Below are positions 10,548 through 51,600 of a stretch of DNA of 64,000 nucleotides, piece by piece. The DNA comes from Physcomitrium patens (lineage: Eukaryota; Streptophyta; Bryopsida; Funariales; Funariaceae): contig NC_037256.1 of assembly GCF_000002425.4 (NCBI RefSeq), forward strand, positions 1,768,051-1,832,050, given 5' to 3'. How positions within the stretch are numbered: the stretch's first letter is position 1; the number at the start of each line of letters is the position of its first letter. The notes beneath the pieces are model-generated. The model saw only the letters and a list, made by a program, of their open reading frames with translations, did not search any database and was not told where the DNA came from. The position numbers and the translations under genes are program-made.

Positions 10548-10747
10548 CACAGGGTTCTCTCTCATCTGCTTGGCTCTCTCCTTGTGCTGTGTGTGTCTTG
10601 GCGTTCTCGCTCCGTTGCTCTCGCGTCTGTGTACAAATCTATCGGGGCAAGTTTAGTGTGGTTTGAGGAAGGCTGTGTTTATCGCAATTTAGAGGAAGAC
10701 GTCGTAGACGATCGGAGGACCGTGCAAGGCACTCCAGGTCGGCAGCC

Positions 10748-21179: not shown

Positions 21180-21373
21180 AGGAGTAACGCAATGATGGGA
21201 GGAGAGGAGTAGGGTTTGGGCGTAGACGGGGAGGAAGGGGGGGTGCCTGGTTGTGGATGTCGTTGTGGTTAGGTTGAGGTGGATGAGGGTGGCAGCTGGA
21301 CTGGGTTCGGGAAGCGGAAGCCCGTGGGCGCCGTGGACGAAGACGGTTTGAAGAGGCGTTCGGGGGGAGACGG

Positions 21374-24300
21374 ATGCTGGTGGAAGTAGGAGACGGATCC
21401 ATGGCAGAAGACTCAGTGGAGGCCCTGCTTGGGCTGTGCGAGAAGCTTGATTTGGACGAACAGGTGAAGGAAAAGGAAGGAGAATCAGAGGGTGCGGTGG
21501 AGCCCGGAGCGGCGGACAGCAATGGGCACTTGACGGGAGAAGAGGCTGCAAGAATTGGAGTGGAAGGTGCGGCGGCAATTGAGCCGGTGCCAGAAGTGGA
21601 TGGAGCAGCAGATGCGTCGGAGGGCTCTCGCCCGCCGGCGCAAATAAAGAGTTGGAGTGATTTCAATGCAGTGTGTGCGCATACGTTCGGGGAGCAGCAG
21701 TCGTTCGGGTCGTTCTCAGACTTTCTTGCAAACCAGCCGGATTTGCCACCTCAAAGTTCCGGTCCGGTGGAAATGGCGTCGGATGTCGATTTTTTCGAAT
21801 GGGGAGGCATGGGATCCGAACTCTTGGCTGAGGGAGGAATGGGCTTCAAGACGTCTCAGCCCGAGCCGCCCGCCGTAGCAGTAGTTGAGGAGGCATTGCC
21901 CGAAATTGATGAGCGGCCACCGGAGACTGGTGCAACAACGACACATGAAGAGGTCGCACCACCGCAAGCGCCAGCGGAGCAGGATTTTGGAATTGGGCAG
22001 GAAGTGCAAACGTGGTCGGAGCTTCCAGCGGAGGAAGGGCAAGCTGCGGTGGCGGATGCTGGCATCGAGGATCCCTATCCAGGATGGTATTACGACTATC
22101 AAGCGTGCGAGTGGCGGCAGGTTGAGGGCTACGGCGCAGTTGCAGCTGTTACAGAGTATGCAGGTTATGACGGAGGCTATGTAGAACATCATCACTTGCA
22201 GGGTATTCCGGAGGCAAATGTTTTTCAGCCGGAGGAAAGCCAGACTCCCGTGCCGGAGGATGGAACCGTGGCAGGCGAGGTGGATTTGGGGCAGTCTCAA
22301 TCTTGGGGCACGCAGTCTGCCGCAACCCAAACAGTGGCAGACGAGTATCCGGGGTGGAAATGGGACTACGTCGCGCAGGCGTGGGTTCAAGTACCGGATT
22401 ATAACGAGGCTTGGACGAGTAGTTCGACTACTCAATCTCAGGATCACATTGGGCAGCAATCCTGGTATGGACAACCCGAGCAGCTGTCCCAAACTTACAG
22501 TGAGAAGCCGGTAGCTTCTAACGAGCAGCAGCAGGCCCAGGGGTTTTCAGGGTATGGAAACGATGGTGCAAACGTTATGGGCAATGGGCACGCATCGCAA
22601 AGTGCGAATCCAGTGAGCACTGGGCCGGTGTATGCGAAGGAGACGAGACAGTGGGAGGGTGATCTAGCACACAACAGTGCGGCAGGAGGTGGGGCGTCGA
22701 GCTTCTATTCTCCGCAGATGAATGGAGAGCAGGGTTGGGGAGCACCTGCCTTCAGCCAGCCGGAGCAGTTCGTTAGCCAGAGTTTGCCATCGGTTCCATA
22801 CGCGTCTTCGTACAATTATGGTGCAGATGGCGGACACAGCGGCTACGCGCAGCAGCCTTGGAACAATCCCTCTCCTTTCGGGCAGTATCAGCAGCAATAC
22901 ACGAATCCTACGGCTTCTCCTCCCAAGAACGTCCAAGAGGCGATGAGGACTTGTGTAGGACGACCGCCTATCTCAGTTTCAGCATTTGGATTTGGAGGGA
23001 GGTTTATTTTCATGAAGCACAGGGACCCTGTGACACTTCACACTAGTAACGGTGATCAGGTATGGCATGGGCACGGGAGGAATTTTGAGCAGTTATTGCT
23101 GGTGACGTGCTAGCAGCTTGTCATTTCCGGATTGAGTAGTGCAGTCGTCAGCAGGCAGCCTAGAACTTCAGAAACAGCGTGGAATTGTCTCAGAGCAGGT
23201 TGACATGAGTAAAGACATGCAGGATGAGTGATGATTTTGAGAGCTGTCTCCATGGAAGAAGCAGGAGAAGAGTTAGGGTTTCGTCCGAAGAGACGTCGCT
23301 AGCGGGGGGACTTGGATGCAAGGCTTGTCACCGTTGGAGTCGTCGGTAGGGAGTCCGTAGGGGTTGCACATATGTTTGTGGTAAAGAGTTCATCGGTTGC
23401 GTGCCTGTGGTGGTGGGGTTGATCATTCGGGAGTCTGGGATCGGCAAACTGGTATGATATCTGGTGGGTCTGGGGTTTTTAACGTCCGTGATGGGCATTG
23501 TGGGTGGAGCAGGCTTTTGCTAGTGGCGAGGCCTGGATGCCGGGTCCTATCCAACTGTCGAGCCTGAAGGGCCACCTTCCTCAGGAACCGACTTTTGCAG
23601 GTCCACTTCTGGGCGGTGGAGCTAGCCCCAAAGAACTGATCAAGTGGATTGACGAACGGATGGCTACTCAATCACAATACGATTCTTCGCGGCTTCTGCT
23701 GGGAGTGCTGAAGGTGGCATGCCAGCATTATGGGAAGTTGCGGTCTTCTGGCGTGAATTCCGCGAACTCTGCAGTGGTGGGTTACGATGCCATGCCGTGT
23801 GTGGTCATACGAGCTGACTTAGCTGGGGATATGCAGTTACCTTGTTGCGTTTGGGATGGTCTAAGTCAAGTGGCGTTGGGTGATCCTGTGGCGTGAGTGA
23901 TCAAGAGTTCTGAATGTGTTCATTCTTGGGCAAGGACGGTAGCAGTGGGTTATCCACGAGGGCCGAATAGGAAGTGTGTATGTAATTGGAAGTAAGCAGC
24001 ACGAGGGTATGTATGATGTGGTACGAGTTGCGCAAAGGCTGTTTTAAAGTTTTGGGACTCGGATTTCGAGCTGGATACGTACTGATCGTCACGCCTGAAG
24101 TCATTTCTGATCCATCGTCTGGAGGGGACGTTTCAAACGCAGCACTCGCTTAAGTTTGGTGTGTTTGGGGAATGCAGGAAGAAGACGGGCCAGAAGCAGC
24201 ACTGGCAAAGTTGTTGGCAGGTGCTGGAGGTGAGCAAAGTCCATATGCAGGGATGGTTAATAGGAACCTTGGATTGCGCGGAGTGCCCTCGGAGCAGCAG

Positions 24301-27300
24301 TTGCAGGTATGTGTTTTGTGGCTGTGAGGGCGTGCTGCATCGTCTGGTACATGTTGTAGTCTCGTTAGCCACGAATTGCGAGCTGTGAGCAGCGGCCATG
24401 CCGTGGTGTTACATTTGCTGTGGGGTTTCAGGGGTTGTGTGGTTTTAGTGTTGGCGGCTCAAGTTTTTTGTATTATGGGTCTTCCGTCGGCATGCTCTAA
24501 CCAAGTGGCCGTTGTCTTGGTGGCGATGCGAAGGCCACAGCAGTGGAGGTGAAGAAGTTTCTGGTGTGTGGAAAGCGAAAGGATGCTTTGAAGTGTGCAC
24601 AGGAAGGCGAGCTGTGGGGCATTGCCCTGGTCATTGCTCGACAGCTGGGCGAAAAGGTAGATGTCAAAGTTGATATGTGCTGGTGTGAGGAGTTTTACGA
24701 TGGGTCTGCGTCGTGATCGGTTGGGAGGCGACACCGTACGTAGTCCTGGTTGTGAGTGCGAGTGACTTGTGATAGGTACATGATTGTTGTTGCAGTGTTT
24801 TGATAACGTGAGTGAGATGCGTGATGGACATGTATTTGTGTTGACGGATGGCATGTTGTAATGCAGTTCTTCTGTGACACCGTGACAGAGATGGCTCGAC
24901 GGCAGTTTGTATCCGGGTCCCCTCTACGCACACTGAGCCTTCTTCTTGCCGGTCAGCCTGCGGAGGTGTTTGCAGCGCCCAGCCCGCAATCAGGAAATCC
25001 GATGGGTGGAGTAGTAGCTGCCAGCGAACAGAGTGAGGTGTTTATTCATTCATGGATATGGAGATGTCAATTGGTTTTCGTAGCTTTTGTAGGTTTACCT
25101 AGCAGCATTCGGTCTCGGATTTGAAGCTCTCTGGAGAAGGTGTTGGTTTCACTCCTCCGGAGAGGTTGTTCCTCGTCTTGAATGGTGGGGGGTGGCAGGT
25201 TGGTTCTTTGCGCGATAGTCAGGAACGGACTTCAATGCCCGTTAGTGTATTCCTTTGGCGGACGATGGTGTCTGATTGTGGTTGTTGACCAATGTAGGTC
25301 GGACAAGGAGCTATGCTGGACGATTGGCAAGAGAATATTGCCATTATGGCCGCTAATCGCACGCAAGGGGATGAGCGTGTGATGTTACATCTCGGGGACC
25401 GACTGTGGGGTGTTCGTGGGGAGGTAGGCGTTTTTTATTTTGTTTTTTATTTTGTTTTTGTTTTTGTTTTTTTTTTTAATGCTTGGATGATGCATGGAGT
25501 AAGTGGGATCGAACAAGGACTGCTTGGTCGTAATGCGATGGTTGGTTTGGTATTGCAGGTAGCAGCTGCACATGTGTGTTATTTGATTGCGGATGCAAAT
25601 TTGGAGTCGTACTCTGGAAATGCAAGGTTGTGCCTGATTGGTGCTGATCATTGCAAGAATCCGCGAACGTTTGTTACCGCAGAGGCTATTCAGGCGAGCA
25701 TTCTTGTTTCTGGGAATCGAGTAGCCTGGTCTGCGTGCTTTGCGTTGTGTCTTTATGATGTGGATATACATCGAATTGAGGTCTTTTAATATGAACAATA
25801 ATGTTCACGGAGATGTTTAGTGTCGTCGCGTGGTACTGTTGAGGTAGTTTTCATGTTATTTGGCGCTTTCCTCGTGAATCGTCCGGCACTCCGACCGTTC
25901 TGTGTGCGTACTAGTTGGAGAGGTCGTGGGTTTGTGTGAGTGAGTTTTTTCTGACTGCGTGTTTTCTGTTGGACAGAGGACAGAGATTTATGAACACGCG
26001 AAAGTATTGGGGAATCCCCAAAGCGTTTTGATATCGTTTCAACCGTACAAGCTTGTTTATGCTGAAATGCTGGTTGAATGTGGGAAGGCTGGGGACTCAC
26101 TCAAGTATGTGGCGGTTTGATGAGTTGCTATCCTGCGTTACGGTGTATCGTACAGTTGGGCTTTTGTCTGCCAAGTCTGTCAACAGCAGAACCTTGCACA
26201 GCAAGAGCTGGAGGGGATGGATAGAGCTGTGGGGATGTTGTGGATGTGGTGTGCAGTTGCGTGCTTGACTGATGTCTTTGAGGATGACACGTGCTTGAGG
26301 ATTGTGGCATTCAAATTTGTCCGATGTATGTTCGTATGCGTGAGTCGTTGAAACGCTGCAGCAGTAGAGCAGCAGCTGAATAGTTAGAGTTTGTGAGGAT
26401 TCTCACTGTATGGCGTGGTTGGATCTACAGATACTGTCAAACAGTGTTGAGGACGTTGAAGTCAGCAGGAATGCGGAGTCCGGAGGTGGAAGCATGTAAA
26501 GTACTTGCGACAAATATGGAAGAGAGGCTCCGAGTGCATTTGCAGGTATGTTGAATCAGGTTCTGGGCACTTGTGTCATCTGCTTTGTTGATGTGCGTAC
26601 TGCACGTGCTTAGGAGAGATGGTGCAGTTCGGAGGAGTTGTGTTATCTCCCTGCATTTCCAGGACCGCAAAGTTTCTGCGTCGTTCAAGCGGTTGATGAC
26701 AAATGGGGCATGCCAAACCTCTAGCAGTCTGAGGATTGTGCGGGCTCCTGATTTTGAGGGCTAGTTCCACGGGTCTTTTGGACAGGAGACATTTTACATT
26801 TCATCTGCTGGAGCGTGGCATTTTACATCATAGGGGAGGTTAATGGAGTGGTGAATGCTTTTATTCCGAAGGGAATGCCGTACAACGAACACGGTTTGCG
26901 AGGCAATAGTACGACGAGATGGAGACACTGAACGCGTTGGGATATTTGTGCGTGCAGGATGGTCATGGATCGATGTTGGCACGTGGAAAGTTGGTGAATA
27001 AAATTAAGGGCACCATGGATTGGGGGATTTCCAAGTTGATTGGAGGCCCTCCTCCAACTGCTCCAGCAACGGATTCGTTTGGGTACAGACCGTTAGACAA
27101 TGGGGATCATCATGGGGGGCAGAGCTTACGTTCCAGCGGCGGTGGAGGGCAGCGGTCAGGCGCGCAAATGGTGCCATCAGCATCTATCGCGGCCTCCATG
27201 GAGCGGCTGCCTCAGGAACCGAATCGCGGTCCAGCTCGCAGCCAGTCCGAGCCAGACTTTGGCAGGAATGCCAAGCAGGTACTTGTTCGCAGGAGGCTTT

Positions 27301-29807
27301 TGAGTTTTTTGAGAAATAAAAAGGGTTTGTACTTTGGAGCATTTCGTAAGATTCGGTGAATTTTCTACTGGTGCAGCCGATTTAGCACTCGAGTTGATTA
27401 CAAAAAGAGTTCAGACGTGAAGCTTAGAGGTGAAATTTGGTCGAGTAAACCCACACCCCCGCCCCTCCGGTTTGGAGGTTACGCAGAATGTGCAACGGCG
27501 CCAGAATAGGCATGCAGTTGTACATTATCTGAATCCTAGAGATTGCAGTCTGTGGGTTGTGGTTGCATGTGTTTCTGGACCATAGTTGAGATGATTCTGG
27601 TCTGTTACGTTTAGTACATGAAATGTTAACAGGAACGTGACAAGTTTAATTGGGTCCGTGCCTTAATAACAACATTGGAAGATGTGTGGGTCTTCTCTAA
27701 ATCGTCGCGTTACGGAATATTACTGCACTTGTTTAAGATTCCGAGCGCGAAGAAGTTCAATGTTGGACTGCCGTCATTTTCATATGTGCGAGGCACTTGC
27801 GTTTTGAAATATTTCGATAACGCATTATTGTGTGGTGCTGAAGCGGTAAACGGGAACGCGGATGCATCAATTTTTTTGTTGAAATAACACGCTCAACAAG
27901 TGTCAGAGATAGGAAGTACGTCGTATCGGATCGGATCTAACGCTTTAGGGACGGGAGTTGTAACAACATAAACACCAGCCCAACATGCCACATGGTGGGT
28001 GTGTGAGCAAGGCCAGCAGCCTTAGGGTTGTGCGGAAGAGTAGGTCGTAGCGGCGCACGTAGGTTGCGAAGTATTAGGTCCGGTACAACTACTGGATACG
28101 AAAAGGAATGGACCACCAACAGGCCCACGTCTTGTCGTCGATTTGCCATTCTGTGTTGGAGAAGTGCTCTCCAAGGATCGCATATTGTGTGGCTGTGCAG
28201 TATAACGTGCTGACGGATGTAACGTGTTTGAAAATGTGTTCAGGGAGAGACAGACGGGAATTCCGGAGTATCTCCGAGAGCAAGTGGATTACGTCTGGCT
28301 GGACTTGGTCGGTTGGGTAGCAGTTTCCTGCAGAGGGCGACTGGGCTGTGGGGTTCGAACAAGAGAGAGGTGGGGAGGCAAGCCTTGTTCTGTGTTATCT
28401 ATGTTAGATGGATATGGGCTCCGTAATTTAATTAGTTGTTAATGACTAGCCTGCGATAAGACTGGGTACGAATTTACCCTGTTTGAGCTTGCGGGAGGCA
28501 AAGCCGTATGGGTATATGGATATTTGAGGGCCTCATTGCCTGTGGTTCTAAGTGTGATTGTTCGGTAATGTAAAAGAAGAACGCGTGGTCGTGTTTTACA
28601 GGCGAAGCTGGGAGATGCTAACAAATTTTACTATGATGAGAAACTGAAGAAGTGGGTGGAAGAAGGAGTGGATCCTACTCCGGATGTTGCACCGCTTCCG
28701 CCCCCACCCACGACTTCCAGCTTCATGGGATCCGCTCCCCCTCAAGAAGAAACTCATGCACCGCCCCAAGCTGTAACTTCGAAACCGGGGACGCCGCCCT
28801 TGGCACCTACTAGCGGCAATCACTATTCGAATCGTCGGCAAGCTGGCGGCGTTCGGTCCAGGTATGTATGTGTGTGTATGCACACATACACGACACTCGC
28901 TTTCTGCATTATAGTTTCATGGTGGCATATTTGTAGATTTGGGGATCCTGATGCCCACTATTGTGCGTGTTATTTTCTGCAAGAACTGGCGATGCAGCGC
29001 AGCATGCTGTATCTTGTAATCCGCAGCGATTCTTAACATGTGTTTTTTGTGTACAGGTATGTGGACACTTTCAACAAGGGGGGTTCAACAACTCCCGCGA
29101 AATCGGTGATGGGATCTCTGATGCCACCTCTAATGCCAGGGGCGGGTATGATGTCCACGCCCGCCAATATGTTTGTTCCAGGTCCTGCCCCTTCGAGTTC
29201 GTTCACTGATAACAACAGTGATGTGGGCGAGAGCGTTGTGGGCAGGTCTTCAAGAAACGGCGATGCAGGCACCAGCCAGGGTCTATTGTCGGACACTGCG
29301 AGCTCGAATGCGAATATGGACACAGGCCTAGGCTACCCTCCTACGACATATTCCACGAGTCCTCAGGTGTCAAGCGCAGACAACGGGCTTGCATCTTTGA
29401 AGGCAGAAAGTGCCGATTTGAGTTTTCACGGGGGACCTCCTGTGTTTGGAGGTGCCCACACAAGATCGTCGTCATGGGGTGGGTACCCAAGCTCTTTCCA
29501 GAATCCGCATACTCCTGGAGAGGAAGATGCGTTTGGAGCTAGCTTTAGTGGTCACGACAGGCTGACTCGGTCGGAACAAATGCCTCATGTGTCGCCCATG
29601 TCAGTGGGTCAATCTGGGTATGGTAACTTTTATCTACTCAACGGTAGCGGGGCGAATGCTTCGTTGCCTCTTCCACATCCTTTAGGTGTTCCAAGTGCAG
29701 GTGGTGAAAATAGGGATCCCAATAGACAAATGATGGGACAACAATTTAGAGGAAGTCAGTCGGTCGATTCTCTAACTGGAGAGGAAATGCAGGAAGTAGA
29801 GCTTTAG
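21374..29807 (+). CDS. SEC16: SEC16, COPII coat assembly scaffold (left copy), 1420 aa
   Basis: SEC16 marks ER exit sites and scaffolds COPII assembly (Arabidopsis MAG5/SEC16A). Exons: 21374-23059, 23145-23198, 23513-23776, 24178-24306, 24534-24656, 24867-25037, 25298-25423, 25559-25693, 25977-26104, 26431-26545, 26958-27278, 28602-28861, 29057-29807. Phases agree throughout (4263 nt). Exon 1 is a disordered acidic/Gln-rich region with two aromatic repeats of the form YPGWxxDYxxxxWxxV at residues ~235 and ~325. The central conserved domain starts near residue 519 (GRPPISVSAFGFGGRFIFMK). The alpha-solenoid spans about 590-980, with GPLLGG, KELIKWIDERM, SGSPLRTLSLLLAGQPAEVF and AHVCYLIADANLESYSG all family-typical. 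The C-terminal NKFYYDEKLKKWVEEG (~1091-1106) matches the conserved SEC16 tail motif. The intron 25694-25976 appears to be GC-AG. Exon 2 is the least certain. A second Met at 21401 could be the real start. Confidence 0.93.
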
Positions 29808-31501
29808 GTTGTAGGAGACGAGCTGGCTATGCTCGTGAAGGTTGAGACCTTAATTTAATAATTTTTTTTTTTTTTTTTTTTCTTCTGTATTTTCCAACCA
29901 TTAGATACTGAAAGTTAATATACATGTGTGCGACACAGCACGCTAGTAGAATCATTCCCTCTGGTAAATCTTGTGGCGATGATACGAATGAGCAAGCGAG
30001 AGCGCGATTGCCGAGTGATGTCCTCAACTGGCTGACCGATTGGCTGTGGCTCGGATGGCGACGCTGGCTGTCGAAGATGTTGGCCAATAGCTGGTAATTA
30101 TCTGGACATTGGTTTTTTTTCGTGAGTGGGTGTGGTTAGCAATGTCAGTGATATGCTAAGTGCAGTATCAATTCCTACTGTTGTTTCGGGTGTCTGATTG
30201 CCTGCGTCGAGAGGGGATGCTGAGTTTTTGAAGGCTATGACGTTCGTACTGGATCGTAGATTAGCTCAACAGAAGAGGCCACTTAGCTTGAGAGCGGTTC
30301 GGCGTGTAATGTTCTCTCGAGCGTTCCTGGAGGCACTTGCCGAAGCAGGCTCATGTGGAGCGATCTGTGTTTGACTTGGTGCGCTTTGATTAGAAGGACC
30401 TGCAAGTTCCAGTCCCTGATGCGAATGGTGGATGCATAGGGAAGCTGCACCTGCTAGTTTTGATTTTTATTATACACATGATAATCGGGAGTTTTCGTTC
30501 GTTGTTGTGTGGTGGTTTTGCAGTGGCTGGGCAGGCGGAATGAAGTCTGGTAGAGGGTAGCTGCTCATCGATGGGCGGGGAGATGCGGCTGTTGTTGTTT
30601 TGAGCGCAAGCACAGCTGGTGTTTTCTCTTTGTTTTTGTTGCACAGCTTTGAGCAGCTCAAGGGGAAGCACAGTTGTCTGCAATGGCTAATGAATAGGAA
30701 CTCAGTTGTGTACAAAATTTCAATTGGTAATTCATCAACGACACAGGTTGTGTTTGGCAGCAGTCTCCTACTGATGGCTTCCCACAATCTTGGTCTTATT
30801 ATTTTTTACTTTTTATTTTTTTTCTGTTGTTTGGTTTCCGAATCAAACTGGATCGATCCGGCAAAATAATATACACGGAGAGTCGGTGACGAGTTTAGTT
30901 GTTGCTGTGGTGGTATGATGTTGGCAGGATTAAGCCCTGCTGTGTTATTGCAACAAAGTCCAGAAAGTGTTAGCGTCATGGATTGCATAGCTTTGGCATA
31001 CCATTTTTGTTACATGTAAATTGTAGATGATATTTTGTTTTGACTTCACATATTGTGAGAGCAGTAGTTTGTGAGTGAATTATGTAAATATGAGATTATT
31101 TTTAGTTATCCTGTCCCAAAGAACAAATGGAATTAATTTAGTTATGCTTAGTTGAGTTCAAAAGCTTCAAAAAGTAGCCAATTGTTTTTGTGTTTATCAT
31201 CTTTGTAAAATCGAAAACATATTTTGTAATTTACAATATCAATAATTGTGTAGTAGTTGCAGTTTGCACAAGATATATAATTTATAAAATCTTGCAATTC
31301 AAAGAGAAGGTTCTTCTCATCCACTTATGCAATTTGGAATTTCTTTTCATTTATAAACTCATTAATGAGACTATAATAACAAATACAATATGTTAAAGAA
31401 TTTAGGAGGATATCTACAATTTGTGAATCTTCAAGGTCTTGCAACTAAAGTCATGTCCTAATAATTTTTAAAGACTAGATTTAAGAGCATCTTCTAGGCT
31501 T
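29808..31501 (+). other. 3' flank of SEC16 inside the left arm
   Basis: Includes a 20-T run at 29862-29881, GC-balanced sequence to about 30900 (3' UTR or former neighbour sequence) and AT-rich sequence to the breakpoint. The ORFs in it are open in several overlapping frames, and none resembles a protein family. The same stretch is present on the right arm at 41016-42709. Confidence 0.5.
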
Positions 31502-32345
31502 TTCACATGGTGTTCAAAATTCTTTCCAAAAGTTTACCTTGCTTTTGTTTATTGCCATGTCTCTAAAAATTTACTTTTTCCTACTGCATAAGTAGATATT
31601 TTTGACTTTTCAAAAATTGATAATCTTGTGGCAAAAGATTTGGCAAATCACTTATTAGAGCTACATGTAATAATAAAGGCATAATTAGGAAAAAATGCTC
31701 AAGAACAACAAATGATTAATATGGATGAGTTTTTTTAAGGAACAATCTTAAGGTATTGTTATTTCATTATAATATCAAAACTATTTGTTTTTATGATAAG
31801 TTGGATTATCGTAGACTTATACCATTTTCTATTTGTAAATGGATCAATTTAGTTGCATATTAATTACATCTACTGGAGTTGATAAAGATCCATATCATAT
31901 TCTATGTGTCTCTTTTTGAGCCATGTAAGACAATAGATATACAAGGAAGAAGACTTATGCCACCTCTTTCTATATAAGTAGACAATAATGAAAGGTTTGA
32001 GGTCAAAGAAGTCTTAAATTCAAGGTGGCACCAAAATAAGTTGGAATGTCTTCTACATTGATGCAGACATGATATTAGAAAACACACATGGGAATTAGTA
32101 AAAAAATCTTACAAATGTGGCAATGAAGATTGATGGTTTTATTAATTACATCCATCAAAACCAAAATGATGAATCAAGACATGATCAATGCTCTTTGTGG
32201 AATTTGTCCCTAAAAGAGGAAAAAATATCATGAAGCTACATAAATTATTTAGTTAAGAAGTGTTAAATAGAAGATAAGTATTAATTAAAATTTAAGTATT
32301 AAATAGAGGATAAGTATTAGATAGATGCGGATTTGAATATACACA
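31502..32345 (+). mobile_element. Ty3/gypsy retrotransposon remnant: integrase C-terminus and chromodomain
   Basis: A heavily decayed plus-strand coding trace. Readable pieces are AKDLANHLLELHVI near 31635, AQEQQMINMDE near 31705, DKLDYRRLIPFSICKWINLV from about 31795, then FYVSLFEPCK and FEVKEVLNSRWHQNKLE near 31996-32045, and HTWELVKK. These correspond in order to the plant gypsy integrase tail (DKLDYRRLGPF, IHPVFHVSLLEP) and a chromodomain (EEILDSRR, WEP), so a chromovirus-type element. Stops and frameshifts are frequent, with a bias towards A/T. It begins at or near the duplication breakpoint, and no integrase core precedes it. Confidence 0.8.
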
Positions 32346-32866
32346 TGTTTTTAATTGATTGGTAGGTTGGAAACTTGGCTATGTTTATCACATATTGACC
32401 TCTTATGTTACAAGTTGACTATGTGATATACATGTAGGAAATATGTCCTTCAAATTAGACACTTGTCAGAGGCTTTGTAGAACTCTGCTTCATAGCTCAT
32501 AATTTGATAGTATATGTAGAGACAAGAGTGAAGCTTTTTTATACTCTTATCAATGCCTTTCTAATCTTTAGTCTTGTCTCAAGAGTCTTTAGTTTTCTTT
32601 TTGGCGATAGCTATTCTAGTTTGATATTATACCATCTTTGAGTAATTATCTATTGTTTTATTGTGACACAAAAGTATATTGACCTCATGGTTTTTTGTGA
32701 TTCATATCCTTAATAGTTAATATAATTCATTTGTCATGCAAATGAAAGAAAATAGTGAGTGTTTTTTTTTTTTTCATCTTTGATGCATATGGTTTCTAGT
32801 ACATTCATAAAGTCAAACTTCTTTGTTGTTATTCCTTGTTCTAGCTGCCAAGCATTAAGAGCTCCA

Positions 32867-32903
<37 letters not shown>

Positions 32904-39100: not shown

Positions 39101-39405
39101 AGTAATCATTGTTCTATAAAAAATAGGATTCAAATAGCAATGTTATAATAAAAAAAACTAAGTCTTGTTGTAGCTAAATTCTTTGATATGTGCTTGGTTA
39201 AAAATTGTATCACTTGATGGCATTATTTGGCTTCCATGCGTGTTCTTTGTTGCACTCTTTGTATAAATTTTTCATGTTTCTATTGCAACTCTAACTTACT
39301 TTGCTACTTTTGTAATTCAAGCTGCGTAGGCTTCTTGTGCTTGCAAAGCCTTTATGCATTGTGACATTTCTTTTTCAGTGGTGGATATTTTTTTTTGGAT
39401 ATTGT
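36186..39405. other. AT-rich spacer DNA with probable decayed retroelement sequence
   Basis: No intact gene. Frames such as 37138-37374 and 37991-37761 are open by chance in AT-rich sequence and show no motif. The last few hundred bases lead into the gypsy polymerase fragment and may be its decayed gag/protease part, but no motif there is readable. Confidence 0.45.
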
Positions 39406-40700
39406 TCCTATGATTTGTCAATTGATCTTCAAGAAGGAGCTCAACCACAATTTGGATCAATCTATTGTTTATTAAAAAATAAGTTGGCTAAAGTCAAGAA
39501 ATATATTTATGGAACCTTGTTAAGAATTTCATCCATTATTTAAAATTTCTAATAGGAGCTCCAATCTTGTTTGTGAAGAAAATAAATAGATCATTGTGGA
39601 TGTATGTGGATTATTAAAGATTTAATAAGATTACCATTAAAAATATATTTTTTCTATTTTTGATATCTAGACTTTTTGATCAATTGAATCAAATAAAGAT
39701 CTATACAAAAATAGATCTATGAGAAGCATATAATTTAGTATGCATCAAAGATAGAGATGGATAGAAGATTGTATTTTAAATTAGGTATGAAAATTTTAAA
39801 TATAATGTCATATTTTTTAGACTCATAAATGCTTTTGTAGCTTTTTGACATCTAATAAATGATTTCTTCAAGAATTTTTATATGATTTTATTGTTGGTTA
39901 TTTAAAAAACATCTTAATCTATTCTAAAAATATAAAAGATCATGAACTCCATATTTGTTGTATATTATCAAAACTAAGAAATATAGGATTCTATACCAAG
40001 ATAGAAAAGTATATATTTTATAATACTTGAGTCAAATTCTTAGAATAAATCATTTCAAATGATGAATTTATGATAGATCTTAAGAAATTTCAAACTATTA
40101 TAGATTAGAAGATCTCAAAATAGTAAGAAAAATTCAATGTTTTTTGAGATTTGCCAATTACTATTAAATCTTTAATAAGATTTTTTTTCAAGTTATAGCT
40201 CCATTTATATGTTTGATTTGTAAAGACAAACTTGAACAGAATTAAGATGCAAAAGTAGAATTTGAAGCTTTGAAGATAATTCTTGTTTCTACACCAATTT
40301 TATATTGCATCAACTTTTTTAAACCATTCTTTATGGAAAAAGTTCCATCAAACTTTGCTTTGAATGTTATATTATTATAAATAGAAGCAAATGACAAACT
40401 TCACCTAATAGCTTTTTATTCAAGAAATGTTTTAAGTAGCCAAGATTAACTACAAAATTCATAATAAAAGACTTTTTGCAATTGTAGAATCATTTTAAGA
40501 ATAACATCATTATTTAAAAGGTACTTCCAATCTAGTTACTATGTTTATTGATTATAAGAATCTTGAGTATTTTATGTCTGCACATGTTTTAAATTGTTGT
40601 TAAGCTTATTGGACCATGTCTTTGCCAAAATTTGAATTTAAGATCACTTATTGACCAAAAAAGAAACAAGATTTATTACATGTTTTTTTTAAACATGAAT
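39406..40700 (+). mobile_element. Ty3/gypsy retrotransposon remnant: reverse transcriptase and RNase H
   Basis: Decayed plus-strand pol. In order: IDLQEGAQPQFGSIYCLL from 39421, APILFVKK-like sequence near 39560, CVDY and NKITIKN-like pieces near 39600-39645, IYTKIDLRSAYN-like sequence near 39695-39735, FEALKIILVSTPILY near 40261, PSNFALN near 40345, LHLIAFYSRN near 40400, and EYFM-like plus KITYRPGKKQ-like pieces at 40565-40670. These follow the order of plant gypsy RT and RNase H. Many C-to-T/G-to-A type changes create stops. The fragment stops short of the right breakpoint without a readable integrase. Confidence 0.85.
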
Positions 40701-41015
40701 AAGAACTTTTGATTCAAATTTTCTTAAGCAAGTTTAATCAAACATGTCCTTTGATCATCTTCTTTATTTTTAAATTAAAATACAAGATCTTGAATTATTT
40801 CTATCTCCACTTCTTGATTATTATCCACTTTTGTACAAAGCAATTGCATTTTTCTTTTCTTTTCTTTTCTTTTTTCAAAATATTCTAGTATAATCATAAT
40901 TGTTCAAGTATTGGCATGGTTATAGAAGTTTGTAACCTCAATGACAACAAGAATATAAGATTTAATGAAAGTTTGATACTAAGATTTAAAATTCAATAAA
41001 ATCGAACTTTGTATC

Positions 41016-42709
41016 AAGCCTAGAAGATGCTCTTAAATCTAGTCTTTAAAAATTATTAGGACATGACTTTAGTTGCAAGACCTTGAAGATTCACAAATTG
41101 TAGATATCCTCCTAAATTCTTTAACATATTGTATTTGTTATTATAGTCTCATTAATGAGTTTATAAATGAAAAGAAATTCCAAATTGCATAAGTGGATGA
41201 GAAGAACCTTCTCTTTGAATTGCAAGATTTTATAAATTATATATCTTGTGCAAACTGCAACTACTACACAGTTATTAATATTGTAAATTACAAAATATGT
41301 TTTCGATTTTACAAAGATGATAAACACAAAAACAATTGGCTACTTTTTGAAGCTTTTGAACTCAACTAAGCATAACTAAATTAATTCCATTTGTTCTTTG
41401 GGACAGGATAACTAAAAATAATCTCATATTTACATAATTCACTCACAAACTACTGCTCTCACAATATGTGAAGTCAAAACAAAATATCATCTACAATTTA
41501 CATGTAACAAAAATGGTATGCCAAAGCTATGCAATCCATGACGCTAACACTTTCTGGACTTTGTTGCAATAACACAGCAGGGCTTAATCCTGCCAACATC
41601 ATACCACCACAGCAACAACTAAACTCGTCACCGACTCTCCGTGTATATTATTTTGCCGGATCGATCCAGTTTGATTCGGAAACCAAACAACAGAAAAAAA
41701 ATAAAAAATAAAAAATAATAAGACCAAGATTGTGGGAAGCCATCAGTAGGAGACTGCTGCCAAACACAACCTGTGTCGTTGATGAATTACCAATTGAAAT
41801 TTTGTACACAACTGAGTTCCTATTCATTAGCCATTGCAGACAACTGTGCTTCCCCTTGAGCTGCTCAAAGCTGTGCAACAAAAACAAAGAGAAAACACCA
41901 GCTGTGCTTGCGCTCAAAACAACAACAGCCGCATCTCCCCGCCCATCGATGAGCAGCTACCCTCTACCAGACTTCATTCCGCCTGCCCAGCCACTGCAAA
42001 ACCACCACACAACAACGAACGAAAACTCCCGATTATCATGTGTATAATAAAAATCAAAACTAGCAGGTGCAGCTTCCCTATGCATCCACCATTCGCATCA
42101 GGGACTGGAACTTGCAGGTCCTTCTAATCAAAGCGCACCAAGTCAAACACAGATCGCTCCACATGAGCCTGCTTCGGCAAGTGCCTCCAGGAACGCTCGA
42201 GAGAACATTACACGCCGAACCGCTCTCAAGCTAAGTGGCCTCTTCTGTTGAGCTAATCTACGATCCAGTACGAACGTCATAGCCTTCAAAAACTCAGCAT
42301 CCCCTCTCGACGCAGGCAATCAGACACCCGAAACAACAGTAGGAATTGATACTGCACTTAGCATATCACTGACATTGCTAACCACACCCACTCACGAAAA
42401 AAAACCAATGTCCAGATAATTACCAGCTATTGGCCAACATCTTCGACAGCCAGCGTCGCCATCCGAGCCACAGCCAATCGGTCAGCCAGTTGAGGACATC
42501 ACTCGGCAATCGCGCTCTCGCTTGCTCATTCGTATCATCGCCACAAGATTTACCAGAGGGAATGATTCTACTAGCGTGCTGTGTCGCACACATGTATATT
42601 AACTTTCAGTATCTAATGGTTGGAAAATACAGAAGAAAAAAAAAAAAAAAAAAAATTATTAAATTAAGGTCTCAACCTTCACGAGCATAGCCAGCTCGTC
42701 TCCTACAAC
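41016..42709 (-). other. 3' flank of SEC16 inside the right arm
   Basis: The counterpart of 29808-31501, with the 20-base A/T run at 42636-42655. It holds three of the arm differences (opposite 30809, 31240 and 31246). No gene recognised. Confidence 0.5.
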
Positions 42710-45700
42710 CTAAAGCTCTACTTCCTGCATTTCCTCTCCAGTTAGAGAATCGACCGACTGACTTCCTCTAAATTGTTGTCCCATCATTTGTCTATTGGGA
42801 TCCCTATTTTCACCACCTGCACTTGGAACACCTAAAGGATGTGGAAGAGGCAACGAAGCATTCGCCCCGCTACCGTTGAGTAGATAAAAGTTACCATACC
42901 CAGATTGACCCACTGACATGGGCGACACATGAGGCATTTGTTCCGACCGAGTCAGCCTGTCGTGACCACTAAAGCTAGCTCCAAACGCATCTTCCTCTCC
43001 AGGAGTATGCGGATTCTGGAAAGAGCTTGGGTACCCACCCCATGACGACGATCTTGTGTGGGCACCTCCAAACACAGGAGGTCCCCCGTGAAAACTCAAA
43101 TCGGCACTTTCTGCCTTCAAAGATGCAAGCCCGTTGTCTGCGCTTGACACCTGAGGACTCGTGGAATATGTCGTAGGAGGGTAGCCTAGGCCTGTGTCCA
43201 TATTCGCATTCGAGCTCGCAGTGTCCGACAATAGACCCTGGCTGGTGCCTGCATCGCCGTTTCTTGAAGACCTGCCCACAACGCTCTCGCCCACATCACT
43301 GTTGTTATCAGTGAACGAACTCGAAGGGGCAGGACCTGGAACAAACATATTGGCGGGCGTGGACATCATACCCGCCCCTGGCATTAGAGGTGGCATCAGA
43401 GATCCCATCACCGATTTCGCGGGAGTTGTTGAACCCCCCTTGTTGAAAGTGTCCACATACCTGTACACAAAAAACACATGTTAAGAATCGCTGCGGATTA
43501 CAAGATACAGCATGCTGCGCTGCATCGCCAGTTCTTGCAGAAAATAACACGCACAATAGTGGGCATCAGGATCCCCAAATCTACAAATATGCCACCATGA
43601 AACTATAATGCAGAAAGCGAGTGTCGTGTATGTGTGCATACACACACATACATACCTGGACCGAACGCCGCCAGCTTGCCGACGATTCGAATAGTGATTG
43701 CCGCTAGTAGGTGCCAAGGGCGGCGTCCCCGGTTTCGAAGTTACAGCTTGGGGCGGTGCATGAGTTTCTTCTTGAGGGGGAGCGGATCCCATGAAGCTGG
43801 AAGTCGTGGGTGGGGGCGGAAGCGGTGCAACATCCGGAGTAGGATCCACTCCTTCTTCCACCCACTTCTTCAGTTTCTCATCATAGTAAAATTTGTTAGC
43901 ATCTCCCAGCTTCGCCTGTAAAACACGACCACGCGTTCTTCTTTTACATTACCGAACAATCACACTTAGAACCACAGGCAATGAGGCCCTCAAATATCCA
44001 TATACCCATACGGCTTTGCCTCCCGCAAGCTCAAACAGGGTAAATTCGTACCCAGTCTTATCGCAGGCTAGTCATTAACAACTAATTAAATTACGGAGCC
44101 CATATCCATCTAACATAGATAACACAGAACAAGGCTTGCCTCCCCACCTCTCTCTTGTTCGAACCCCACAGCCCAGTCGCCCTCTGCAGGAAACTGCTAC
44201 CCAACCGACCAAGTCCAGCCAGACGTAATCCACTTGCTCTCGGAGATACTCCGGAATTCCCGTCTGTCTCTCCCTGAACACATTTTCAAACACGTTACAT
44301 CCGTCAGCACGTTATACTGCACAGCCACACAATATGCGATCCTTGGAGAGCACTTCTCCAACACAGAATGGCAAATCGACGACAAGACGTGGGCCTGTTG
44401 GTGGTCCATTCCTTTTCGTATCCAGTAGTTGTACCGGACCTAATACTTCGCAACCTACGTGCGCCGCTACGACCTACTCTTCCGCACAACCCTAAGGCTG
44501 CTGGCCTTGCTCACACACCCACCATGTGGCATGTTGGGCTGGTGTTTATGTTGTTACAACTCCCGTCCCTAAAGCGTTAGATCCGATCCGATACGACGTA
44601 CTTCCTATCTCTGACACTTGTTGAGCGTGTTATTTCAACAAAAAAATTGATGCATCCGCGTTCCCGTTTACCGCTTCAGCACCACACAATAATGCGTTAT
44701 CGAAATATTTCAAAACGCAAGTGCCTCGCACATATGAAAATGACGGCAGTCCAACATTGAACTTCTTCGCGCTCGGAATCTTAAACAAGTGCAGTAATAT
44801 TCCGTAACGCGACGATTTAGAGAAGACCCACACATCTTCCAATGTTGTTATTAAGGCACGGACCCAATTAAACTTGTCACGTTCCTGTTAACATTTCATG
44901 TACTAAACGTAACAGACCAGAATCATCTCAACTATGGTCCAGAAACACATGCAACCACAACCCACAGACTGCAATCTCTAGGATTCAGATAATGTACAAC
45001 TGCATGCCTATTCTGGCGCCGTTGCACATTCTGCGTAACCTCCAAACCGGAGGGGCGGGGGTGTGGGTTTACTCGACCAAATTTCACCTCTAAGCTTCAC
45101 GTCTGAACTCTTTTTGTAATCAACTCGAGTGCTAAATCGGCTGCACCAGTAGAAAATTCACCGAATCTTACGAAATGCTCCAAAGTACAAACCCTTTTTA
45201 TTTCTCAAAAAACTCAAAAGCCTCCTGCGAACAAGTACCTGCTTGGCATTCCTGCCAAAGTCTGGCTCGGACTGGCTGCGAGCTGGACCGCGATTCGGTT
45301 CCTGAGGCAGCCGCTCCATGGAGGCCGCGATAGATGCTGATGGCACCATTTGCGCGCCTGACCGCTGCCCTCCACCGCCGCTGGAACGTAAGCTCTGCCC
45401 CCCATGATGATCCCCATTGTCTAACGGTCTGTACCCAAACGAATCCGTTGCTGGAGCAGTTGGAGGAGGGCCTCCAATCAACTTGGAAATCCCCCAATCC
45501 ATGGTGCCCTTAATTTTATTCACCAACTTTCCACGTGCCAACATCGATCCATGACCATCCTGCACGCACAAATATCCCAACGCGTTCAGTGTCTCCATCT
45601 CGTCGTACTATTGCCTCGCAAACCGTGTTCGTTGTACGGCATTCCCTTCGGAATAAAAGCATTCACCACTCCATTAACCTCCCCTATGATGTAAAATGCC

Positions 45701-48700
45701 ACGCTCCAGCAGATGAAATGTAAAATGTCTCCTGTCCAAAAGACCCGTGGAACTAGCCCTCAAAATCAGGAGCCCGCACAATCCTCAGACTGCTAGAGGT
45801 TTGGCATGCCCCATTTGTCATCAACCGCTTGAACGACGCAGAAACTTTGCGGTCCTGGAAATGCAGGGAGATAACACAACTCCTCCGAACTGCACCATCT
45901 CTCCTAAGCACGTGCAGTACGCACATCAACAAAGCAGATGACACAAGTGCCCAGAACCTGATTCAACATACCTGCAAATGCACTCGGAGCCTCTCTTCCA
46001 TATTTGTCGCAAGTACTTTACATGCTTCCACCTCCGGACTCCGCATTCCTGCTGACTTCAACGTCCTCAACACTGTTTGACAGTATCTGTAGATCCAACC
46101 ACGCCATACAGTGAGAATCCTCACAAACTCTAACTATTCAGCTGCTGCTCTACTGCTGCAGCGTTTCAACGACTCACGCATACGAACATACATCGGACAA
46201 ATTTGAATGCCACAATCCTCAAGCACGTGTCATCCTCAAAGACATCAGTCAAGCACGCAACTGCACACCACATCCACAACATCCCCACAGCTCTATCCAT
46301 CCCCTCCAGCTCTTGCTGTGCAAGGTTCTGCTGTTGACAGACTTGGCAGACAAAAGCCCAACTGTACGATACACCGTAACGCAGGATAGCAACTCATCAA
46401 ACCGCCACATACTTGAGTGAGTCCCCAGCCTTCCCACATTCAACCAGCATTTCAGCATAAACAAGCTTGTACGGTTGAAACGATATCAAAACGCTTTGGG
46501 GATTCCCCAATACTTTCGCGTGTTCATAAATCTCTGTCCTCTGTCCAACAGAAAACACGCAGTCAGAAAAAACTCACTCACACAAACCCACGACCTCTCC
46601 AACTAGTACGCACACAGAACGGTCGGAGTGCCGGACGATTCACGAGGAAAGCGCCAAATAACATGAAAACTACCTCAACAGTACCACGCGACGACACTAA
46701 ACATCTCCGTGAACATTATTGTTCATATTAAAAGACCTCAATTCGATGTATATCCACATCATAAAGACACAACGCAAAGCACGCAGACCAGGCTACTCGA
46801 TTCCCAGAAACAAGAATGCTCGCCTGAATAGCCTCTGCGGTAACAAACGTTCGCGGATTCTTGCAATGATCAGCACCAATCAGGCACAACCTTGCATTTC
46901 CAGAGTACGACTCCAAATTTGCATCCGCAATCAAATAACACACATGTGCAGCTGCTACCTGCAATACCAAACCAACCATCGCATTACGACCAAGCAGTCC
47001 TTGTTCGATCCCACTTACTCCATGCATCATCCAAGCATTAAAAAAAAAAAAAAAACAAAAACAAAATAAAAAACAAAATAAAAAACGCCTACCTCCCCAC
47101 GAACACCCCACAGTCGGTCCCCGAGATGTAACATCACACGCTCATCCCCTTGCGTGCGATTAGCGGCCATAATGGCAATATTCTCTTGCCAATCGTCCAG
47201 CATAGCTCCTTGTCCGACCTACATTGGTCAACAACCACAATCAGACACCATCGTCCGCCAAAGGAATACACTAACGGGCATTGAAGTCCGTTCCTGACTA
47301 TCGCGCAAAGAACCAACCTGCCACCCCCCACCATTCAAGACGAGGAACAACCTCTCCGGAGGAGTGAAACCAACACCTTCTCCAGAGAGCTTCAAATCCG
47401 AGACCGAATGCTGCTAGGTAAACCTACAAAAGCTACGAAAACCAATTGACATCTCCATATCCATGAATGAATAAACACCTCACTCTGTTCGCTGGCAGCT
47501 ACTACTCCACCCATCGGATTTCCTGATTGCGGGCTGGGCGCTGCAAACACCTCCGCAGGCTGACCGGCAAGAAGAAGGCTCAGTGTGCGTAGAGGGGACC
47601 CGGATACAAACTGCCGTCGAGCCATCTCTGTCACGGTGTCACAGAAGAACTGCATTACAACATGCCATCCGTCAACACAAATACATGTCCATCACGCATC
47701 TCACTCACGTTATCAAAACACTGCAACAACAATCATGTACCTATCACAAGTCACTCGCACTCACAACCAGGACTACGTACGGTGTCGCCTCCCAACCGAT
47801 CACGACGCAGACCCATCGTAAAACTCCTCACACCAGCACATATCAACTTTGACATCTACCTTTTCGCCCAGCTGTCGAGCAATGACCAGGGCAATGCCCC
47901 ACAGCTCGCCTTCCTGTGCACACTTCAAAGCATCCTTTCGCTTTCCACACACCAGAAACTTCTTCACCTCCACTGCTGTGGCCTTCGCATCGCCACCAAG
48001 ACAACGGCCACTTGGTTAGAGCATGCCGACGGAAGACCCATAATACAAAAAACTTGAGCCGCCAACACTAAAACCACACAACCCCTGAAACCCCACAGCA
48101 AATGTAACACCACGGCATGGCCGCTGCTCACAGCTCGCAATTCGTGGCTAACGAGACTACAACATGTACCAGACGATGCAGCACGCCCTCACAGCCACAA
48201 AACACATACCTGCAACTGCTGCTCCGAGGGCACTCCGCGCAATCCAAGGTTCCTATTAACCATCCCTGCATATGGACTTTGCTCACCTCCAGCACCTGCC
48301 AACAACTTTGCCAGTGCTGCTTCTGGCCCGTCTTCTTCCTGCATTCCCCAAACACACCAAACTTAAGCGAGTGCTGCGTTTGAAACGTCCCCTCCAGACG
48401 ATGGATCAGAAATGACTTCAGGCGTGACGATCAGTACGTATCCAGCTCGAAATCCGAGTCCCAAAACTTTAAAACAGCCTTTGCGCAACTCGTACCACAT
48501 CATACATACCCTCGTGCTTCTTACTTCCAATTACATACACACTTCCTATTCGGCCCTCGTGGATAACCCACTGCTACCGTCCTTGCCCAAGAATGAACAC
48601 ATTCAGAACTCTTGATCACTCACGCCACAGGATCACCCAACGCCACTTGACTTAGACCATCCCAAACGCAACAAGGTAACTGCATATCCCCAGCTAAGTC

Positions 48701-51142
48701 AGCTCGTATGACCACACACGGCATGGCATCGTAACCCACCACTGCAGAGTTCGCGGAATTCACGCCAGAAGACCGCAACTTCCCATAATGCTGGCATGCC
48801 ACCTTCAGCACTCCCAGCAGAAGCCGCGAAGAATCGTATTGTGATTGAGTAGCCATCCGTTCGTCAATCCACTTGATCAGTTCTTTGGGGCTAGCTCCAC
48901 CGCCCAGAAGTGGACCTGCAAAAGTCGGTTCCTGAGGAAGGTGGCCCTTCAGGCTCGACAGTTGGATAGGACCCGGCATCCAGGCCTCGCCACTAGCAAA
49001 AGCCTGCTCCACCCACAATGCCCATCACGGACGTTAAAAACCCCAGACCCACCAGATATCATACCAGTTTGCCGATCCCAGACTCCCGAATGATCAACCC
49101 CACCACCACAGGCACGCAACCGATGAACTCTTTACCACAAACATATGTGCAACCCCTACGGACTCCCTACCGACGACTCCAACGGTGACAAGCCTTGCAT
49201 CCAAGTCCCCCCGCTAGCGACGTCTCTTCGGACGAAACCCTAACTCTTCTCCTGCTTCTTCCATGGAGACAGCTCTCAAAATCATCACTCATCCTGCATG
49301 TCTTTACTCATGTCAACCTGCTCTGAGACAATTCCACGCTGTTTCTGAAGTTCTAGGCTGCCTGCTGACGACTGCACTACTCAATCCGGAAATGACAAGC
49401 TGCTAGCACGTCACCAGCAATAACTGCTCAAAATTCCTCCCGTGCCCATGCCATACCTGATCACCGTTACTAGTGTGAAGTGTCACAGGGTCCCTGTGCT
49501 TCATGAAAATAAACCTCCCTCCAAATCCAAATGCTGAAACTGAGATAGGCGGTCGTCCTACACAAGTCCTCATCGCCTCTTGGACGTTCTTGGGAGGAGA
49601 AGCCGTAGGATTCGTGTATTGCTGCTGATACTGCCCGAAAGGAGAGGGATTGTTCCAAGGCTGCTGCGCGTAGCCGCTGTGTCCGCCATCTGCACCATAA
49701 TTGTACGAAGACGCGTATGGAACCGATGGCAAACTCTGGCTAACGAACTGCTCCGGCTGGCTGAAGGCAGGTGCTCCCCAACCCTGCTCTCCATTCATCT
49801 GCGGAGAATAGAAGCTCGACGCCCCACCTCCTGCCGCACTGTTGTGTGCTAGATCACCCTCCCACTGTCTCGTCTCCTTCGCATACACCGGCCCAGTGCT
49901 CACTGGATTCGCACTTTGCGATGCGTGCCCATTGCCCATAACGTTTGCACCATCGTTTCCATACCCTGAAAACCCCTGGGCCTGCTGCTGCTCGTTAGAA
50001 GCTACCGGCTTCTCACTGTAAGTTTGGGACAGCTGCTCGGGTTGTCCATACCAGGATTGCTGCCCAATGTGATCCTGAGATTGAGTAGTCGAACTACTCG
50101 TCCAAGCCTCGTTATAATCCGGTACTTGAACCCACGCCTGCGCGACGTAGTCCCATTTCCACCCCGGATACTCGTCTGCCACTGTTTGGGTTGCGGCAGA
50201 CTGCGTGCCCCAAGATTGAGACTGCCCCAAATCCACCTCGCCTGCCACGGTTCCATCCTCCGGCACGGGAGTCTGGCTTTCCTCCGGCTGAAAAACATTT
50301 GCCTCCGGAATACCCTGCAAGTGATGATGTTCTACATAGCCTCCGTCATAACCTGCATACTCTGTAACAGCTGCAACTGCGCCGTAGCCCTCAACCTGCC
50401 GCCACTCGCACGCTTGATAGTCGTAATACCATCCTGGATAGGGATCCTCGATGCCAGCATCCGCCACCGCAGCTTGCCCTTCCTCCGCTGGAAGCTCCGA
50501 CCACGTTTGCACTTCCTGCCCAATTCCAAAATCCTGCTCCGCTGGCGCTTGCGGTGGTGCGACCTCTTCATGTGTCGTTGTTGCACCAGTCTCCGGTGGC
50601 CGCTCATCAATTTCGGGCAATGCCTCCTCAACTACTGCTACGGCGGGCGGCTCGGGCTGAGACGTCTTGAAGCCCATTCCTCCCTCAGCCAAGAGTTCGG
50701 ATCCCATGCCTCCCCATTCGAAAAAATCGACATCCGACGCCATTTCCACCGGACCGGAACTTTGAGGTGGCAAATCCGGCTGGTTTGCAAGAAAGTCTGA
50801 GAACGACCCGAACGACTGCTGCTCCCCGAACGTATGCGCACACACTGCATTGAAATCACTCCAACTCTTTATTTGCGCCGGCGGGCGAGAGCCCTCCGAC
50901 GCATCTGCTGCTCCATCCACTTCTGGCACCGGCTCAATTGCCGCCGCACCTTCCACTCCAATTCTTGCAGCCTCTTCTCCCGTCAAGTGCCCATTGCTGT
51001 CCGCCGCTCCGGGCTCCACCGCACCCTCTGATTCTCCTTCCTTTTCCTTCACCTGTTCGTCCAAATCAAGCTTCTCGCACAGCCCAAGCAGGGCCTCCAC
51101 TGAGTCTTCTGCCATGGATCCGTCTCCTACTTCCACCAGCAT
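42710..51142 (-). CDS. SEC16: SEC16, COPII coat assembly scaffold (right copy), 1420 aa
   Basis: The mirror copy of the left gene, with the same predicted protein. Exons on the minus strand: 51142-49457, 49371-49318, 49003-48740, 48338-48210, 47982-47860, 47649-47479, 47218-47093, 46958-46824, 46540-46413, 46086-45972, 45559-45239, 43915-43656, 43460-42710. The domain order (disordered N-terminus, central conserved domain, alpha-solenoid, C-terminal YYDEKLKKWV motif) is intact, with no frameshift or stop. The only gene-body difference found is in the intron 47092-46959. The upstream DNA differs completely from the left copy beyond 51336, so the two genes may be expressed differently. The putative GC-AG intron is 46823-46541. 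Confidence 0.93.
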
Positions 51143-51334
51143 CCGTCTCCCCCCGAACGCCTCTTCAAACCGTCTTCGTCCACGGCGCCCACGGGCTTCC
51201 GCTTCCCGAACCCAGTCCAGCTGCCACCCTCATCCACCTCAACCTAACCACAACGACATCCACAACCAGGCACCCCCCCTTCCTCCCCGTCTACGCCCAA
51301 ACCCTACTCCTCTCCTCCCATCATTGCGTTACTC

Positions 51335-51600
51335 CTGCATGAAAGCCACTACACTAACCTAGTATTCTGTGACAGTGTCTGCCGTAGAAACTCACCAAAC
51401 TCAGATCTATGCAACAAAACGGTCAGAAGAAAACCCCCAATGGTTTGTTAATCCAGAGAGGAGACCTTCCTTAGCTTGCTACTCACTCGCTTGCTTAGAT
51501 CTTTGATAGAGCTGTATCCCAGAGAGAATAATCCACGGGTTCGAGCACTCGCTCGGTGCTGCCTCTCATTCAAAATCTCAATCCGAGTGTTTATATTGTT
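51335..51600 (-). promoter_or_regulatory. putative core promoter, 5' UTR exon and short 5' UTR intron of the right SEC16 copy
   Basis: Read on the minus strand: a TATAAA at 51595-51590, about 195 bp of GC-balanced leader ending ATAGATCTGAGTTTG, then a GTGAGT donor at 51395 and a CATGCAG acceptor ending at 51335. The leader would splice to GAGTAACGC and continue to the ATG at 51142. The predicted intron is only about 61 bp, near the lower limit for plants. No expression data are available, so this is inference from signals. Confidence 0.5.

What the first reader, a model, noticed from the sequence alone, without database searches (positions are those of the whole stretch)
21180..51336. Near-identical 10.3-kb inverted duplication carrying two complete SEC16 genes around a 9.5-kb unique spacer
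Arms 21180-31501 and 41016-51336 are reverse complements over their whole length. I found only about five base differences, all non-coding. Both SEC16 genes are intact and converge. Such a structure is either very recent or kept uniform by gene conversion, and it could make double-stranded RNA if transcripts read through the spacer. Inverted gene pairs of this kind, such as Arabidopsis PAI, can trigger methylation and silencing. A locus encoding a dosage-sensitive COPII scaffold is an unusual place for it.
Basis: partly seen in the sequence, partly recalled or inferred. Interest (0 to 1): 0.88.

Follow-up and report, generated by a model that had tools for sequence, protein, structure and literature searches.

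The report
Old mirror-image SEC16 pair kept identical
In the moss Physcomitrium patens, two mirror-image copies of a gene needed for protein export look newly duplicated, but the pair seems older than a genome doubling of about 45 million years ago and seems to have been kept almost identical by DNA copying between its two arms.

Summary
Both SEC16 genes are intact, convergent and identical in coding sequence. The genome is Physcomitrium patens. The spacer is not unique; parts are dispersed repeats.

I favour conversion (0.8). (1) The whole-genome-duplication partner locus on contig C12 also has an inverted SEC16 pair in the collinear place, one arm reduced by a 9.1-kb internal deletion. Its arms are 97-99.7% alike, but only 67-75% alike to C4 (Ks 0.50, as for the kelch neighbour). 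(2) Outside the arms, both C4 leaders share a short diverged element also found beside the C12 copies, so the duplication once reached past the present arm edges. (3) An inverted HSP70 pair on C1 is equally uniform (1 difference in 3,942 bases).

Near-identical tandem genes were already reported in this moss, with conversion proposed, so this is a datable new member of a known kind. dsRNA and silencing were not testable, and no reads were examined.

The parts
21180..31501 (+). arm A of the inverted duplication
   Evidence: 99.952% to arm B over 10,322 columns
41016..51336 (-). arm B of the inverted duplication
   Evidence: same match; differences listed
21374..29807 (+). SEC16 gene A, 13 exons, 1444 aa (the public isoform P0001 splices the last exon differently, 14 exons, 1413 aa, stop after 30032)
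   Evidence: exact spliced alignment, translation, Pfam PF12931 1e-56 and PF12932 1.3e-09
42710..51142 (-). SEC16 gene B, mirror of A, identical coding sequence
31502..41015 (.). spacer, AT-rich, holding dispersed repeats (39399-40696 and 31587-32718 among them)
   Evidence: whole-genome search, 39 other places for the first stretch
20795..20840 (+). leader element outside arm A, shared in diverged form with the leader of arm B; overlaps a short upstream reading frame (20798-20851)
   Evidence: score 22 against 0 of 770 control windows as high; E 0.001 in 1.5-kb flanks, E 0.008 in the longer flanks
51594..51684 (-). leader element outside arm B, shared with arm A's leader, with C12 main and with the C12 remnant; overlaps a short upstream reading frame (51622-51681)
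   Evidence: scores 22, 20 and 23, each with 0 of 770 controls as high
10694..14861 (+). neighbour gene (FAM114-like, name recalled), collinear with C12 16484320-16481571
   Evidence: blastn blocks
61564..64000 (-). neighbour F-box/kelch gene, collinear with C12 16457363-16454005; the match runs beyond the window
   Evidence: blastn, Pfam F-box 4.1e-10 and Kelch_1 2.8e-07, Ks 0.485 and 0.516

Best explanation
An inverted duplication of the SEC16 gene, reaching beyond its 5' leader, arose before the whole-genome duplication that made the C4 and C12 loci (inferred from both loci). Since then each locus has been homogenised internally by gene conversion between its two arms (inferred from concerted divergence). 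On C4 both arms stayed whole and the last homogenisation is recent. On C12 one arm lost 9.1 kb (shown), leaving its two ends beside one intact gene. The edges of the identical arms are then limits of conversion tracts rather than the original breakpoints (inferred). The two C4 genes make the same protein from different leaders (shown); that their expression differs is a guess.
For: C12 carries a second, inverted SEC16 copy in the place collinear with arm B: 16462799-16463220 is 97.2% and 16463218-16463611 is 99.7% identical to the two ends of the main arm. C4 and C12 SEC16 differ with Ks 0.503, the kelch neighbour with 0.485 and 0.516, so arms are far more alike within each locus than between loci. 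Arm B's leader matches arm A's leader, C12 main and the C12 remnant at like distances from the arm start (offsets 37, 38, 17 bp), 0 of 770 controls as high in each case. The remnant's outer flank also matches arm B's outer flank near the kelch gene. Outer edges of the two arm pairs lie close together, 194 bp and 156-170 bp before the ATG. A second gene shows the same uniformity: the HSP70 pair on C1, 1 mismatch in 3,942. Weak supports: 3 of 4 substitutions sit within 437 bp near the inner edge (scan P 0.02); SEC16 intron GC is 47.5 and 49.1%, against 30-43% in six neighbour gaps and 49.5% in a seventh.
Against: The leader element is short, 46-89 bp. C4A with C12 main (12), C4A with the remnant (10) and C12 main with the remnant (9) are not above controls, though an old duplication predicts homology there too. 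In the longer flanks the C4A-C4B element has only E 0.008 and stands among other repeat-like matches of similar E. In the shuffle test one unrelated, AT-rich control reached z 4.9 against arm B's flank. The whole-genome search with the leader found only itself and so also missed its diverged relatives; it cannot exclude other diverged copies. Only 1 of 4 substitutions could be polarised. No outgroup moss genome was available.
Confidence: 0.8

Rival explanations
1. Two independent, recent inverted duplications of SEC16, one at each ohnologous locus, with no long-term conversion.
For: Arms within each locus are so alike that a clock without conversion gives about 35,000 years for C4 and 0.2-1.7 million years for C12. 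Inverted pairs recur in this genome, so the mechanism may be frequent.
Against: It does not predict that the sequence outside arm B resembles SEC16 leaders at the same distance, nor the same order, orientation and nearly the same outer edge at both loci.
Confidence: 0.12
2. Assembly artefact: one copy placed twice.
For: No reads were examined here.
Against: The four arm flanks all differ, the arms differ at 5 sites, and the C12 locus has the same arrangement in decayed form.
Confidence: 0.03
3. The inverted pair works as a silencing locus: read-through transcripts form dsRNA and direct small RNAs and methylation, as recalled for Arabidopsis PAI. This could be true together with gene conversion.
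For: Convergent genes with long identical arms. PAI papers seen only as a search listing.
Against: Both copies keep intact, identical reading frames, and the 9.5-kb spacer would need very long read-through. Not testable here.
Confidence: 0.05

Closest known systems
Nearly identical tandemly arrayed genes of Physcomitrium patens (PMC3729371, PMC3045890; passages seen)
   Same: Same species; neighbouring gene copies far too alike for their supposed age; gene conversion already proposed in PMC3045890, citing Lang et al. 2008
   Different: Here the pair is inverted, spans 10.3 kb with introns, and can be dated by a decayed ohnologous pair; I saw no such dating in the passages read
Palindromes of the willow W chromosome (PMC7023750; abstract and passages seen)
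   Same: Inverted arms over 99% alike with a spacer; test is lack of arm differences where the homologous sequence has diverged; one arm carries an internal deletion
   Different: Willow case is on a sex chromosome with four arms; here an ordinary chromosome of a moss, one pair per locus
Mammalian X and Y palindromes (PMC3723533, PMC8981503; search listing only)
   Same: Arm identity over 99% ascribed to gene conversion, with GC bias
   Different: Much larger and sex-linked; conversion there was shown with population data, here inferred
Mammalian gene pairs under concerted evolution for over 100 million years (PMC2720389; search listing only)
   Same: Paralogues more alike than orthologues because of conversion
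   Different: Comparison there is between species, here between ohnologous loci of one genome
Arabidopsis PAI inverted repeat (recalled; search listing)
   Same: Inverted pair of whole genes
   Different: PAI is known for methylation and silencing, which was not testable here

Membership tests
Palindrome maintained by arm-to-arm gene conversion | Long inverted arms over 99% identical around a spacer | tested here: met
   99.952% over 10,322 columns, 9.5-kb spacer
Palindrome maintained by arm-to-arm gene conversion | Arms lack differences although the homologous sequence elsewhere has diverged | tested here: met
   Ks 0.503 to C12 against 4 substitutions in the arm and none in coding sequence
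Palindrome maintained by arm-to-arm gene conversion | Duplication older than the arm identity implies | tested here: met
   inverted pair at the ohnologous locus and shared diverged leaders; three of six leader pairs not above controls
Palindrome maintained by arm-to-arm gene conversion | Conversion events seen between individuals or lineages | not testable with these tools
   no other accession or related moss genome was held
PAI-type silencing inverted repeat | Small RNAs and DNA methylation over the arms | not testable with these tools
   no such data held
Near-identical tandem gene of P. patens | Neighbouring copies with nearly identical sequence in this species | tested here: met
   species; identity
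SEC16 (COPII scaffold) | Sec16 mid-region and Sec23-binding TPR_Sec16 domain | tested here: met
   PF12932 1.3e-09 and PF12931 1e-56 in P0001

The most novel reading that the evidence does not exclude
In this haploid, mostly selfing moss (life cycle recalled), ordinary chromosomes carry many Y-like palindromes around important genes. Because exchange between homologues repairs nothing in a fully selfed plant, an inverted partner acts as a standing repair template, and selection keeps the pairs that still have a whole second arm. SEC16 on C4 (pair kept) and on C12 (arm lost) would be the two fates of one such template.
Probability: 0.2. Interest if true: 0.8.

Novelty: new member of a known kind. 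Interest (0 to 1): 0.5.

Why it matters
Physcomitrium is the plant model for efficient homologous recombination. A datable inverted pair with a decayed ohnologous twin as control turns the older remark that its tandem genes are too similar into a measurable case of concerted evolution. It warns that gene ages read from sequence identity can be wrong here by about a thousandfold (about 35,000 against more than 45 million years, with the date from a passage), and that work on the C4 SEC16 gene deals with two genes of identical coding sequence.

Tried and rejected
The 207-bp match between the outer flanks (20053-20259 and 52651-52850, 73.9%) was first taken as a remnant of the duplication. Its ends look to me like those of a small inverted-repeat transposon, and its copy number could not be tested because that genome search did not complete. 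It is not used as evidence.

Inner flanks: the only match was between C4A and C12 main (61.6% over 622 columns); it overlaps a spacer stretch that is repeated in the genome and is not used.

A first flank test with block shuffles was replaced by dinucleotide shuffles and then by real-sequence controls (770 of 1,780 windows kept by GC 0.38-0.56; windows overlap, both strands). A first automatic gene model was wrong at several exons and was replaced by exact spliced alignment. The output was cut and was not used for counts. For the FAM114-like gene, 5 exon pieces were tried: 2 gave no C12 hit and 3 gave Ks 0.164, 0.535 and 1.04 on 46-71 codons, too few to use. HSP70 was used instead; it was chosen because a paper lists tandem HSP70 pairs, so it is not a random sample.

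Full report
What is there. The window lies at C4:1768051-1832050 of a 470.4-Mb genome in 101 contigs. The genome is that of Physcomitrium patens: UniProt A0A7I4DLP5 of that species aligns exactly to both arms, and the C12 protein is named a P. patens SEC16A homologue. Arms 21180-31501 and 41016-51336 are reverse complements at 99.952%, with 4 substitutions and one 1-base indel. Each holds a complete SEC16 gene: 13 exons for the 1444-aa form, 14 for the public 1413-aa isoform; the coding sequences are identical. The genes converge on a 9.5-kb AT-rich spacer, parts of which are dispersed repeats. Each arm starts 194 bp before the ATG.

The partner locus. A whole-genome protein search (33 of 35 candidates scored) found SEC16 only on C4, in both arms, and on C12, as one gene and a small remnant. 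The C12 locus is the duplicate block of the same region: a FAM114-like gene, SEC16 and an F-box/kelch gene lie in collinear order. Blocks of SEC16 are 67-75% identical between the loci. Ks is 0.503 for SEC16 and 0.485 and 0.516 for two kelch exons, so they split together. A passage in PMC3729371 places the proposed genome duplication about 45 million years ago; one in PMC13120521 speaks of two rounds.

The key result. C12 has its own inverted SEC16 pair. Between the main gene and kelch, facing the main gene as on C4, lies 16462799-16463220, 97.2% identical to the start of the main arm, joined directly to 16463218-16463611, 99.7% identical to its end. About 9.1 kb between them is missing; three bases are shared at the junction. 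The outer edge lies 156-170 bp before the ATG. So both products of the genome duplication carry the same arrangement, each far more uniform within than between loci. That is the pattern of concerted evolution.

The flanks. If the C4 duplication were recent, the DNA outside arm B should be unrelated to SEC16. About 345 bp outside arm B lies an element that matches the like place outside arm A (score 22), outside the C12 main gene (20) and outside the C12 remnant (23, over 89 bp). None of 770 GC-matched control windows scored as high in these three comparisons, and distances from the arm start differ by 17-38 bp. The element overlaps a short upstream reading frame in all four leaders. Against this: the other three of the six leader pairs are not above controls; in the longer flanks the C4A-C4B element has only E 0.008 among other repeat-like matches of similar E; in the shuffle test one unrelated AT-rich control reached z 4.9. 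A genome search with arm B's leader gave only itself, so it missed these diverged relatives too and says little about rarer copies. Nearer the kelch gene, the outer flanks of arm B and of the remnant match again, as synteny predicts. I read the arm edges as limits of homogenisation inside a larger old duplication.

Timing. Scaled to Ks 0.503 over 45 million years, 4 substitutions in 10,321 sites mean about 35,000 years if the arms had never exchanged sequence; for C12 the two pieces give about 1.7 and 0.2 million years. Three of the four substitutions lie within 437 bp near the inner edge (scan P 0.02), as expected where conversion is rarer. Only one of the four could be polarised: at 23997 arm A carries the change. 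Intron GC is 47.5% on C4 and 49.1% on C12, against 30-43% in six neighbour gaps and 49.5% in a seventh; this would fit GC-biased conversion but has few controls.

Is it peculiar to SEC16? A scan of the HSP70 family (73 of 84 candidates scored) showed an inverted pair on C1 with equal scores, an inverted pair on C2, and three equal copies on C7, one of them inverted. The C1 arms differ at 1 of 3,942 positions, with about 2.1 kb between them; the match is cut by the end of the fetched stretch. The C2 pair is a mosaic of 97.3, 87.6 and 79.6%, as partial conversion could leave. Blocks of C1 and C2 are 77-89% alike. The C1 genes converge and the C2 genes diverge, so these two loci are not arranged alike. 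HSP70 was chosen because a paper lists tandem HSP70 pairs. The phenomenon thus recurs in this genome at an unknown rate.

Comparison. Nearly identical tandemly arrayed genes were already reported in P. patens (PMC3729371, passage), and conversion had been proposed (PMC3045890, passages). Palindromes kept alike by conversion are known on the willow W chromosome (PMC7023750, passages) and on mammalian sex chromosomes (search listing). My searches on inverted, tandem or palindromic genes with conversion in this moss or mosses and on SEC16 in this moss listed no title or abstract start describing this locus; the library is partial and only passages of five papers were seen. What is added is a datable case with a built-in control. 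Silencing by dsRNA, as recalled for Arabidopsis PAI, stays possible but untested.

Noticed in passing
20798-20851 (+) and 51622-51681 (-): A short upstream reading frame of 16-19 codons lies about 330-385 bp outside the arm in all four SEC16 leaders (both C4 copies, C12 gene, C12 remnant) with loosely similar peptides; it may be a conserved regulatory uORF.
   Followed up: partly
20053-20259 and 52651-52850: A 207-bp element at 73.9% lies on both outer flanks in mirror orientation; it looks like a small inverted-repeat transposon. Copy number untested (search did not complete).
   Followed up: partly
3-653 and 806-2404 (-): Reading frames that resemble the N-terminal part of a DEMETER/ROS1-like DNA demethylase (recognised from memory; Pfam gave no family for 806-2404).
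   Followed up: no
L020 (C1:17126501-17136500), L021 and L022 (C2): Inverted HSP70 pairs: C1 arms 99.975% alike over at least 3,942 bp; C2 pair a mosaic of 97.3, 87.6 and 79.6%.
   Followed up: partly
31973-32281 and 33735-34042: A 309-bp inverted repeat at about 81% inside the spacer, in a stretch that has further matches in the genome.
   Followed up: partly
29617-30032 and mirror 42900-42485: The public isoform P0001 splices 29617 to 29939 and ends after 30032, whereas the C12 gene and the unspliced reading end in one long last exon: possible alternative 3' ends.
   Followed up: no
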